Assembly (NCBI GenBank): GCA_903874895.1
Contig: CAIQUG010000246.1
Location: forward strand, 1 to 57,775
Direction: 5' to 3'
Source: an uncultured Caulobacterales bacterium
GTDB lineage: Bacteria > Pseudomonadota > Alphaproteobacteria > Caulobacterales > Caulobacteraceae
DNA length: 57,775 nt
Shown here: positions 31,139 through 36,796 of the stretch, piece after piece
Layout: the number at the start of each line of letters is the position of its first letter
Position numbering within the stretch: the stretch's first letter is position 1
Translations under genes and position numbers: made by a program
The notes under the pieces: generated by a model
Databases searched by the model: none
What the model was told of the DNA's origin: nothing
Seen by the model: only the letters and a program-made list of their open reading frames with translations

Positions 31139-32433
31139 GCGATGCCACGATACCCGGACAGCTGCCGACCGGCGCCCCCTTCGGGGCGTGGGAGCGGGCG
31201 CTGGCCTTCCGGTATCTGAAGGCCCGCCGCAAGAACGGCGGCATCGCCCTGATCGCCTGGATCAGCTTCATCGCTGTGACCCTCGCCGTGGGGGCACTGA
31301 TCATCATCATGTCGGTGATGAACGGGTTCAGATCCGAGATCGTGTCCCGCATGGTCGGGTTCAACGGCCACATCTACGTGCAGGGGCCGGCCACGGGTGC
31401 CCCCACCCGGGACGCCTTGATCAGCCGGATCCGGGCCGTGCCCGGGGTGGTGCAGGTGGTTCCGGTGGTTCAGGCCCAGGCCCTGGTGGTCGGGCCAGGC
31501 CAGGTCACCGGTGCCATCGTCCGGGGCATGCGGCCGGAGGACCTGCGCGGCACGCCGATCATTGCCCGCAACATCAAGGGCGGCTCCCTCGACGGCTTCG
31601 GTCAGGGCGAATATGGCGGCGACATGGTGCTGGCCGGGTCCGGCATGGCCGACCGGCTGGGGGTGAAGGCCGGGGACAGCATCAGCGTCATCTCCCCAAA
31701 CGGTGCGGCGACGGCGTTCGGCTCGACCCCGCGGCGCAAGTCCTACACCGTCGGCGGCGTCTTCAATGTGGGCCTCACCCAGTACGACGCGGCCTATATC
31801 TACATGCCCCTGGAGCAGGCCCAGCTGCTGTTCGGCCGCGGCGACACCGTTGACCTCCTGGAGGTCAATCTCGACGACGCCGACCATATCGATGCCCTGA
31901 AGCCCTCGATCCAGGCCGCGGCCGGGACCGGCGCGGTCCTGACCGACTGGCGGGACGAGAACCACGCCTTCTTCAACGCCCTGCAGGTGGAGCGGGTGGC
32001 CATGCGCATCATCCTGATGATCGTCGTGGCCATCGCCATGCTGAACATCATCTCCGGCCTGATCATGCTGGTGAAGAACAAGGGGCGGGACATCGCGATC
32101 CTGCGCACCATCGGGGCCAGCCCCGGCGCGGTGATGCGGGTGTTCGTCATGGTCGGTGCCGCCATCGGCCTCTCCGGCGCCGCCTGCGGCCTGATCTTCG
32201 GCACCCTGTTCTGCATCTACATCGACCCGATCCAGAGCTTCGTGGAACATGTGACCGGGGTCAGCGTCTTCGCGCCCGAGGCCTATTTCCTTCCGCGTCT
32301 ACCGGCCCGGGTGGAGCCGGGGGAGGTTGCCCTGGTGATGGCCTGGTCCATCCTGATGAGCCTGGTGGCGGCCATCATGCCCGCCTGGCAGGCCTCCCGC
32401 CTCGATCCGGTGGAGGCCCTTCGCTATGAGTGA
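31135..32433 (+). CDS. lolC: lipoprotein-releasing ABC transporter permease (LolC/LolE type)
   Basis: Inner-membrane permease that releases lipoproteins to the periplasmic chaperone LolA. The 432 residues show the N-terminal [18 protein letters not shown], one hydrophobic helix, a large periplasmic domain, and three C-terminal helices starting near [19 protein letters not shown], with [15 protein letters not shown] and a final [13 protein letters not shown]. It overlaps proS by 4 and lolD by 8 bases. Only one permease gene is present, so it may work as a homodimer. Confidence 0.94.
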
Positions 32434-33121
32434 GCCGGCGCCGATCCTGTCCCTGCGGGACGTCACACGGACCTATCCGGTGGGCGACGGCCAGACCCTG
32501 GAAGTCCTGAGGGGCATCGACCTCGACCTGTGGCCAGGCGAGATCGTCGGCCTGATCGGCCCGTCCGGGTCCGGCAAGTCGTCCCTGCTGCATGCCGCCG
32601 GTCTGCTGGAGCGCCCCACGTCGGGGGAGGTCCGCATCGATGGGGTGGACTGCGGCGGACTGAACGAGGCAGGGCGGACGGCCCTTCGGCTCCATCGGAT
32701 CGGCTTCGTCTACCAGTTCCACCATCTGTTGCCGGAGTTCTCGGCCCTCGACAATGTCGCCATGCCGGCGATGATCGCAGGCCGACCGGCGGGTGCGGCC
32801 CGGGACCGTGCCCGGACCTTGCTGACCCGCATGGGTTTGCAGGACCGCCTCGGCCACCAGCCTGCCCAGATGTCCGGCGGGGAGCAGCAGCGGGTGGCCA
32901 TTGCCCGGGCGCTCGCCAACCGTCCGGGACTGATCCTGGCGGACGAGCCGACGGGCAATCTCGATCCTGTCACCTCCACGGCCGTGTTCGAAGCCCTGAA
33001 GGCCCAGGTGCGCAACGAGGGGGTCACGGCCCTGGTGGCCACCCACAATCTCGAGCTGGCCAGTCACATGGACCGCGTGTTTGCCATGCAGTCCGGCGGT
33101 CTTGTTCCCCGCCAGCCCTGA
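32426..33121 (+). CDS. lolD: lipoprotein-releasing ABC transporter ATPase LolD
   Basis: ATPase that powers lipoprotein release with LolC/E. The 231 residues contain Walker A GPSGSGKS (45-52), the Q-loop in [17 protein letters not shown], the signature [15 protein letters not shown], Walker [14 protein letters not shown] and the switch His in [17 protein letters not shown] is characteristic of LolD. It is the last gene of the tightly packed run that begins at nuoA. Confidence 0.95.
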
Positions 33122-33167
33122 GCCATTCGCCGATCCCGGCCGTTCCGAAAAAGTGGGGAAGGGGGGG

Positions 33168-33196
33168 CTTGCCATGAGAACAAAAGGGGAATAGGA
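33168..33196 (+). promoter_or_regulatory. candidate promoter of the sidA-like gene
   Basis: CTTGCC (33168-33173), a 17-base spacer and ATAGGA (33191-33196). The -10 runs into the LexA box, so a bound repressor would occlude polymerase. The match to consensus is modest. Confidence 0.4.
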
Positions 33197-33209
33197 ACAA
33201 AGACAGAAC
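33195..33209 (+). promoter_or_regulatory. LexA (SOS) box, GAAC-N7-GAAC
   Basis: GAAC (33195-33198), seven bases, GAAC (33206-33209): the reverse complement of the alphaproteobacterial LexA site GTTC-N7-GTTC. It lies 27 bases upstream of the small ORF and about 160 bases upstream of dnaE. Position, spacing and the downstream gene agree with SOS control. Confidence 0.75.
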
Positions 33210-33235
33210 GGACTATTCGATTGGGGAGATCACAG

Positions 33236-33325
33236 ATGTTGCAGTTCACGCGTGAGACACTGGCGCTTGCATCCGTCGCAAGCTTCGTCTGGATGATGGT
33301 CGAAGTCGCGCGCATGTTCGCCTGA
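33236..33325 (+). CDS. sidA: SidA-like SOS-induced cell-division inhibitor peptide
   Basis: A 29-codon ORF, too short for routine gene calling. A strong ribosome site (ggggag, 33223-33228) sits 7 bases before the ATG. The peptide begins MLQFTRETLALAS and continues through a hydrophobic stretch with FVWMMVEVARMFA, giving one membrane helix. In Caulobacter crescentus, SidA is a 29-residue inner-membrane peptide that is SOS-induced and inhibits division through FtsW/FtsN, and to my knowledge its gene lies close to dnaE. Length, topology, LexA box and neighbour all agree here; direct sequence comparison was not possible. Confidence 0.75.
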   Translation: MLQFTRETLALASVASFVWMMVEVARMFA

Positions 33326-33370
33326 CGATTCGTCGCCGGTTCACCCGGCTGGAAGCAGGGAAGGGTGGCC

Positions 33371-36796
<3,426 letters not shown>

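What the first reader, a model, noticed from the sequence alone, without database searches (positions are those of the whole stretch)
33168..33325. SOS-controlled 29-residue membrane peptide (SidA-like) between lolD and dnaE
A LexA-type direct repeat GAAC-N7-GAAC lies under a candidate promoter, followed by an ideal ribosome site and a 29-codon ORF encoding a single membrane helix. The known Caulobacter SidA is also 29 residues, SOS-induced and, to my recollection, located next to dnaE. Gene callers normally miss ORFs this short.
Basis: partly seen in the sequence, partly recalled or inferred. Interest (0 to 1): 0.75.

Follow-up and report, generated by a model that had tools for sequence, protein, structure and literature searches.

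The report
SidA, DNA-damage brake beside dnaE
This relative of Caulobacter carries a 29-amino-acid gene of the SidA family behind two LexA-type DNA sites and just ahead of its replicative DNA polymerase gene; the peptide would likely halt cell division when DNA is damaged, and probably related peptides sit at the same spot in other Alphaproteobacteria that the current family model does not recognise.

Summary
The 29-codon ORF at 33236-33325 (+) scores 43.2 bits against the curated NCBIfam equivalog div_inhib_SidA (cut-off 35). It is 59% identical to a Caulobacter vibrioides peptide and ends 45 nt before dnaE. The window lies in a Caulobacteraceae genome, so in itself this is a new member of a known family. 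Two things go further. First, two tandem LexA-type boxes precede it (33178-33192, 7 of 8 bases; 33195-33209, 8 of 8); both forms occur together in 58 of 117 named relatives. Second, the layout (GAACN7GAAC, short hydrophobic ORF, dnaE) recurs in three other families of the order and in 12 further families of the class: 17 of 17 boxed dnaE flanks have such an ORF at the box, while 71 boxless flanks give no model match at E below 2.6. A common model finds one copy in each of 19 of 153 genomes, 18 of them at dnaE. Left-out families beat composition-matched shuffles in 15 of 16 tests. The 24 peptides tested from outside Caulobacteraceae miss the SidA model. SOS induction, LexA binding and FtsW inhibition are inferred, not tested.

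The parts
32426..33121 (+). lolD, upstream neighbour (not a constant neighbour in the family)
   Evidence: top NCBIfam hit TIGR02211, 243.9 bits, below its cut-off of 307.75; named loci
33169..33174 (+). -35-like TTGCCA, starting 9 nt before LexA-type box 1; weak in itself, but TTG[AC] starts 9 or 10 nt before the first box in 74 of 113 named family loci
   Evidence: sequence; no sigma-70 match by the consensus scan
33178..33192 (+). LexA-type box 1, GAAC-N7-GAAT (7 of 8 bases)
   Evidence: GAACN7GAAT is present in 88 of 117 named family loci
33190..33197 (+). possible -10 region (AATAGGAA), overlapping the end of box 1 and the start of box 2; inferred from similar AATAAG in relatives
   Evidence: by eye; inference
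33195..33209 (+). LexA-type box 2, GAAC-N7-GAAC (8 of 8 bases)
   Evidence: conserved
33223..33228 (+). ribosome binding site GGGGAG
   Evidence: sequence
33236..33325 (+). sidA, 29 codons plus TGA: MLQFTRETLALASVASFVWMMVEVARMFA
33371..36796 (+). dnaE, DNA polymerase III alpha subunit (ATG; an in-frame GTG lies at 33365), 45 nt after sidA with no terminator-like site found between
   Evidence: NCBIfam NF004226.0, 1430 bits over cut-off 1002

Best explanation
This is the sidA gene of a Caulobacteraceae bacterium, and its 29-residue peptide, predicted to be a single membrane helix, likely stops septum formation after DNA damage, as SidA does in Caulobacter crescentus. Shown here: sequence membership of SidA, purifying selection on the codons, two tandem LexA-type boxes just upstream, a genome in which such boxes precede lexA, recA and other repair genes, and an FtsW that keeps the three residues tied to SidA. 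Inferred: LexA sits on both boxes and shuts the promoter; RecA-driven LexA cleavage opens it; the peptide inserts in the inner membrane and holds FtsW/FtsI/FtsN inactive until LexA returns. Also inferred: with only 45 nt and no terminator found before dnaE, part of the message probably runs on into dnaE. The same unit (LexA-type box, mini-membrane peptide, dnaE) is found beyond Caulobacteraceae, and many of the peptides there share a register with SidA (an acidic residue just before the helix, Trp 12 and/or 17 residues later), so this brake on division is probably an old alphaproteobacterial device.
For: NCBIfam SidA equivalog, 43.2 bits over cut-off 35. 71 of 119 genomes of the family are over the cut-off (in the 14 named control genomes 1 is over the cut-off, not named, and 9 ring at the loose E of 10). 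31 of 34 family loci sampled only by dnaE have the ORF upstream (2 of the 36 family genomes were not read). Stop after codon 29 in 116 of 117 named loci. dN/dS 0.28. GAACN7GAAC in 83 of 115 named loci; GAACN7GAAT or GAACN7GAAC in 113 of 117. Boxes before lexA, recA, uvrA, ssb, ImuA-like and ruvC genes in this genome (20 places picked by eye out of 100 listed). FtsW A31, F145, A246 kept in 5 of 5 Caulobacteraceae genomes examined. Wider family. Function of SidA: PMC4211646 (passages).
Against: No expression, binding or phenotype data for this organism. The box alone is at the chance level in the window. 12 of the 31 family loci with the ORF have no exact GAACN7GAAC within 600 nt. Three of 34 family loci lack the ORF and one other family of the order lacks it in 18 of 18 loci read, so it is dispensable. 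The helix rests on hydropathy alone. The C. crescentus NA1000 SidA letters were not obtained; comparison was through the NCBIfam model and other C. vibrioides strains. FtsW of this genome scores 333.9 bits, just under its NCBIfam cut-off of 337.5. The Trp offsets were chosen after seeing the peptides. A model of Caulobacteraceae SidA alone ranks the class peptides only weakly (best E 0.025, an unrelated ORF at rank 4).
Confidence: 0.88

Rival explanations
1. The short ORF is a leader peptide whose translation tunes dnaE, and the LexA-type boxes exist to make dnaE damage-inducible; the peptide itself does nothing.
For: dnaE follows in 112 of 112 named loci that could be read, with a median gap of 31 nt to the extrapolated start of the match; no terminator-like site is found between.
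Against: The amino acids, not just an open frame, are conserved and the sequence is that of the SidA family, whose C. crescentus member inhibits division when overproduced (PMC4211646, passages). In other families the distance from ORF to dnaE match reaches about 290-310 nt, long for a leader mechanism.
Confidence: 0.06
2. The peptide is an SOS-induced membrane-depolarising toxin of the TisB/DinQ sort, slowing growth rather than blocking FtsW.
For: Size and single hydrophobic stretch fit; SOS control would fit.
Against: It matches SidA and no other NCBIfam or Pfam model; the FtsW residues tied to SidA are kept. No search for an antisense RNA was made.
Confidence: 0.03
3. The wider peptides outside Caulobacteraceae are unrelated membrane micro-ORFs that arose separately under LexA control at dnaE.
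For: Identity to the window peptide is only 7-28%, the SidA model does not match them, and a model of Caulobacteraceae SidA alone ranks them weakly.
Against: Models built without a family rank that family's peptides above the unrelated upstream ORFs in 11 of 12 families, and in 15 of 16 tests at most 7 of 1000 composition-matched shuffles reach the real score. Place, size, box and, in 13 of 21 representatives, the acid-to-Trp register coincide.
Confidence: 0.2
4. Chance ORF downstream of a chance box.
For: Box frequency in the window is at the chance level.
Against: Conservation of box, start, stop and residues in relatives.
Confidence: 0.01

Closest known systems
SidA of Caulobacter crescentus (NCBIfam NF033228.1 div_inhib_SidA)
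   Same: 29 residues, one hydrophobic stretch, curated profile met, LexA-type box, dnaE downstream in the named relatives
   Different: 59% identical to a C. vibrioides T5M6 peptide; no functional data here; NA1000 sequence not compared directly
DidA of C. crescentus
   Same: Small one-helix inhibitor acting on the FtsW/I/N complex (PMC4211646, passages)
   Different: 71 residues, SOS-independent, reported to bind FtsN; not aligned here
YneA (Bacillus), SosA (Staphylococcus), SulA (E. coli)
   Same: SOS-induced division inhibitors; YneA is also reported to act on FtsW (PMC13396833, title and start of abstract only)
   Different: Different size and, for SulA, a different target (FtsZ; PMC4211646, passage); sequences not compared here; analogues only

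Membership tests
SidA (window peptide) | Score above the curated NCBIfam equivalog cut-off | tested here: met
   43.2 bits against 35; 40.9 bits in the genome search
SidA (window peptide) | About 29 residues with a single membrane helix | tested here: met
   29 codons; best 17-residue Kyte-Doolittle mean 1.89; no dedicated helix predictor was run
SidA (window peptide) | LexA box upstream | tested here: met
   33195-33209 exact, 33178-33192 7 of 8; conserved in relatives; binding not tested
SidA (window peptide) | Position just upstream of dnaE | tested here: met
   45 nt gap; 112 of 112 named loci that could be read
SidA (window peptide) | Induction by DNA damage through LexA | not testable with these tools
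   needs transcript data
SidA (window peptide) | Binds FtsW and blocks division | not testable with these tools
   only indirect: FtsW A31, F145, A246 kept in this genome
SidA as curated, for peptides outside Caulobacteraceae | Score above the NCBIfam cut-off | tested here: not met
   5 of the 29 members of alignment A1 match at E 1 or better, as many as it has Caulobacteraceae members; 24 do not
Wider dnaE-linked SOS micropeptide family (proposed here) | Profile relationship to the other families when left out | tested here: met
   f91 is the weak case (46 of 1000 shuffles reach its score; 7 unrelated ORFs rank above it)
Wider dnaE-linked SOS micropeptide family (proposed here) | LexA-type box upstream and dnaE downstream | tested here: met
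   17 of 17 boxed class loci have the ORF at the box; 71 boxless loci give no model match at E below 2.6 (the model includes most of the boxed peptides)

The most novel reading that the evidence does not exclude
SidA is the visible tip of an ancient, class-wide alphaproteobacterial family: an SOS-controlled one-helix division brake hard-wired to the replicative polymerase gene. One LexA-controlled promoter makes a sidA-dnaE message, so that damage at once halts septation and raises polymerase III alpha. Outside Caulobacteraceae the family has stayed nameless.
Probability: 0.5. Interest if true: 0.75.

Novelty: new member of a known kind. Interest (0 to 1): 0.52.

Why it matters
Known SOS division inhibitors differ from lineage to lineage, and to my knowledge few Alphaproteobacteria have one assigned. 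If the dnaE-linked peptides outside Caulobacteraceae act like SidA, one testable gene at a fixed address answers what stops division after DNA damage in at least 12 further families. It also gives a natural set of highly diverged, presumably FtsW-binding helices from which the contact (the acidic residue and the Trp at +12 or +17) could be read. The two tandem LexA-type boxes and the missing terminator before dnaE raise a second checkable point: whether the replicative polymerase is itself part of the SOS response here.

Tried and rejected
Chance ORF: rejected by conservation. Box rarity in the window as evidence: rejected, it is at the chance level. lolD as the defining neighbour: rejected. 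Of 117 named Caulobacteraceae-type loci, 72 have LolD upstream on the same strand (median distance 1142 nt) and 32 with over 800 nt held have none; dnaE is the constant neighbour. LolD linkage is seen elsewhere too (13 of 17 boxed and 42 of 71 boxless class loci). dN/dS from the pattern-fetched set (0.20) is biased because the pattern fixed residues; its 16 pattern-free codons give 0.33, and the dnaE-sampled set, restricted to genes of exactly 29 codons with a loose core (22 of 33 loci scanned), gives 0.28, which I use. Recurring weak SidA-model hits inside ORFs of about 430-540 aa are sub-threshold and were not followed up. Pfam gave no match for the peptide. Whether the wider family is in print: searches of the held library showed no such paper among the rows listed (11 of 11, 20 of 157, 7 of 7, 20 of 22, 15 of 28; titles and starts of abstracts), nor did the passages seen of PMC4211646, PMC12700426, PMC9578287, PMC13384398 and PMC4117421. 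The original SidA paper (Modell et al. 2011, recalled) is not held and may list orthologs.

Sampling to know: the outer-family loci are the best-matching 30 of 56, 30 of 55, 30 of 54 and 20 of 31 genomes with a dnaE match; four were dropped because the dnaE start could not be placed (two f5, two f2). The 88 class flanks are those of the better dnaE matches, mostly larger genomes, out of 147 class genomes with a match outside the own order. In one search the ORF limit was 45 codons (15 of 17 boxed loci); it was raised to 50 after reading two loci (17 of 17), with the random-position control run at the raised limit. Six class loci had only reverse-oriented GTTCN7GTTC, and no ORF was tied to it. 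Boxless flanks do hold some hydrophobic short ORFs (5% of random positions have one), but none matches the model. In one search, 2 of the 17 boxed loci (G378, G452) fell below the threshold.

Script errors corrected: read minus-strand loci in the wrong orientation (redone); one search stopped on an ambiguous residue (redone); one search took antisense frames for some FtsW (redone); the second half used a faulty expression (redone).

Full report
What is there. Between lolD and dnaE the sequence holds, in order, a -35-like TTGCCA (33169-33174), GAACAAAAGGGGAAT (33178-33192), GAACAAAGACAGAAC (33195-33209), GGGGAG (33223-33228) and a 29-codon ORF from ATG 33236 to TGA 33325, followed 45 nt later by the dnaE ATG at 33371. 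DnaE is over its NCBIfam cut-off; LolD is the top hit but below its own. No intrinsic-terminator-like site and no sigma-70 match is found in 33080-33480.

What it is. The peptide matches the NCBIfam equivalog for the cell division inhibitor SidA over its 29 positions, 43.2 bits against a cut-off of 35. Pfam gave no match. C. vibrioides strains OR37, T5M6 and DSM 9893 are among the carriers; the T5M6 peptide is 59% identical to the window's. In the family search 71 of 119 genomes are over the cut-off. Sampling by dnaE alone, which does not look at the peptide, 31 of 34 family loci read carry the ORF; two further family genomes were not read.

Coding and control evidence. The stop follows codon 29 in 116 of 117 named loci, though the search pattern reached only codon 20. 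In 22 genes from dnaE-sampled loci median dN/dS is 0.28 and variation is highest at third positions. GAACN7GAAC lies within 120 nt of the start in 83 of 115 named loci, against 0-5 for spacings N4-N6 and N8-N11; N1, N2, N3, N12, N13 and N14 give 16, 5, 11, 19, 55 and 46, which I read as the spacing between halves of neighbouring boxes. GAACN7GAAT occurs in 88 of 117 loci, both forms in 58, and one or other in 113. TTG[AC] starts 9 or 10 nt before the first box in 74 of 113, and by eye an AATAAG-like -10 follows box 1. So the sidA promoter often carries two operators, whereas a 2025 paper reports that about 97% of C. crescentus SOS promoters carry one LexA box (PMC12700426, passage). The box type is meaningful in this genome: of 20 box places picked by eye from 100 listed, six precede genes whose best NCBIfam hits are lexA, recA, uvrA (a fragment, under its cut-off), ssb, imuA (under its cut-off) and ruvC. 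A seventh looked like mmcB by eye (recalled) with no NCBIfam match; the other 13 were not assigned.

Target. FtsW of this genome keeps A31, F145 and A246 (C. vibrioides numbering), where changes that suppress SidA are reported; so do all 5 Caulobacteraceae genomes examined. Among 10 genomes of other families, position 31 is Ala in 3, 145 Phe in 5 and 246 Ala in 9. FtsW matches are over the NCBIfam cut-off in 6 of 15 genomes; this genome's is 333.9 against 337.5. The suppressor data and the FtsW/FtsI/FtsN model come from PMC4211646 (passages).

The wider finding. In three other families of the order an exact GAACN7GAAC box followed by a short hydrophobic ORF (mostly 28-34 residues) precedes dnaE in 13 of 30, 18 of 30 and 24 of 28 loci read; a fourth family has none in 18. 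Across the class, 88 dnaE flanks outside the order were read, out of 147 genomes with a match: 17 have the forward box, and 17 of 17 have such an ORF ending within 230 nt of it (15 of 17 at the length limit first used). Random positions in boxless flanks give 178 of 3550, and the reverse strand at the same places 0 of 17. The 71 boxless flanks give no match better than E 2.6 to a common model (reverse strand: 2.0). That model includes most of the boxed peptides, so only its silence on boxless flanks is informative. The 17 come from 12 families.

Are they related? In the alignment the helices line up almost without gaps, and an acidic residue with Trp at +12 and/or +17 occurs in 13 of 21 representatives (restricted shuffles: mean 3.8, at most 9 in 2000; offsets chosen after inspection). 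Models built with a whole family left out rank that family's peptides above the unrelated upstream ORFs in 11 of 12 families; f91 has 7 above it. A model of Caulobacteraceae SidA alone is weak (best E 0.025, an unrelated ORF at rank 4), while one of the four Caulobacterales families puts boxed peptides in its first 11 ranks. Against composition-matched shuffles, 15 of 16 families have at most 7 of 1000 at or above the real score; f91 has 46 (the f12 and f45 peptides were trimmed at the N-terminus). The window's own peptide scores 19.0 bits against a model holding no Caulobacteraceae sequence, 0 of 1000 shuffles. In a six-frame search of 153 whole genomes the common model finds one match in each of 19 genomes: two of the own family, 15 of the 17 boxed loci (G378 and G452 fall below the threshold) and two not seen before (G467, G341). 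18 lie at dnaE; the 19th (G341) sits at a contig end whose missing side would hold dnaE, and that genome's dnaE sits at another contig end. Both new ones have an exact box and an acid with Trp at +17. The 24 members from outside Caulobacteraceae do not match NCBIfam SidA. Three such peptides had relatives in the protein collection, all without a name or called hypothetical where a name is given, one from a Parvibaculaceae bacterium.

How it works. Best supported: LexA covers both boxes; RecA-driven LexA cleavage releases the promoter; the peptide enters the inner membrane and holds FtsW/I/N inactive. All steps after the sequence evidence are inferred from C. crescentus. Read-through into dnaE is an inference from spacing.

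Verdict. As a gene it is an ordinary family member; the class-wide extension is the new part and needs a bench test.

Noticed in passing
L446 (G026:C3:315102-315185, minus strand): A second, 37-residue SidA-like peptide (28.5 bits, below cut-off) in one Caulobacteraceae genome, away from dnaE, directly after a large ORF and with no GAACN7GAAC or GAACN7GAAT on that strand of the 2.5 kb read: a possible paralogue free of SOS control.
   Followed up: partly
family f2 (L288-L307) and Caulobacteraceae genomes G021, G022, G035: These have dnaE but no box-linked peptide in the flank (f2: 18 of 20 loci read; the three genomes). G022 and G035 have no SidA-model match even at E 10, G021 only a chance-level one. 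How they stop division after damage is open.
   Followed up: partly
G011, G013, G030, G031, G067, G084, G085, G098, G111, G117 and others: Weak SidA-model matches (positions 9-28) inside ORFs of about 430-540 aa, in several genomes about 2 kb from sidA; perhaps a Lol transporter permease helix. Below threshold.
   Followed up: no
window 33178-33209 and named loci L081-L197: Two tandem LexA-type boxes; in several Caulobacter (such as L113, L133) a further box, GAACATCTTGTGAAC, lies just upstream of them.
   Followed up: partly
L405 (G000:C122:3367-3381): An exact GAACN7GAAC box 26 nt before a 151-aa ORF that looked like the DNA repair protein MmcB (recalled); NCBIfam gave no match.
   Followed up: partly
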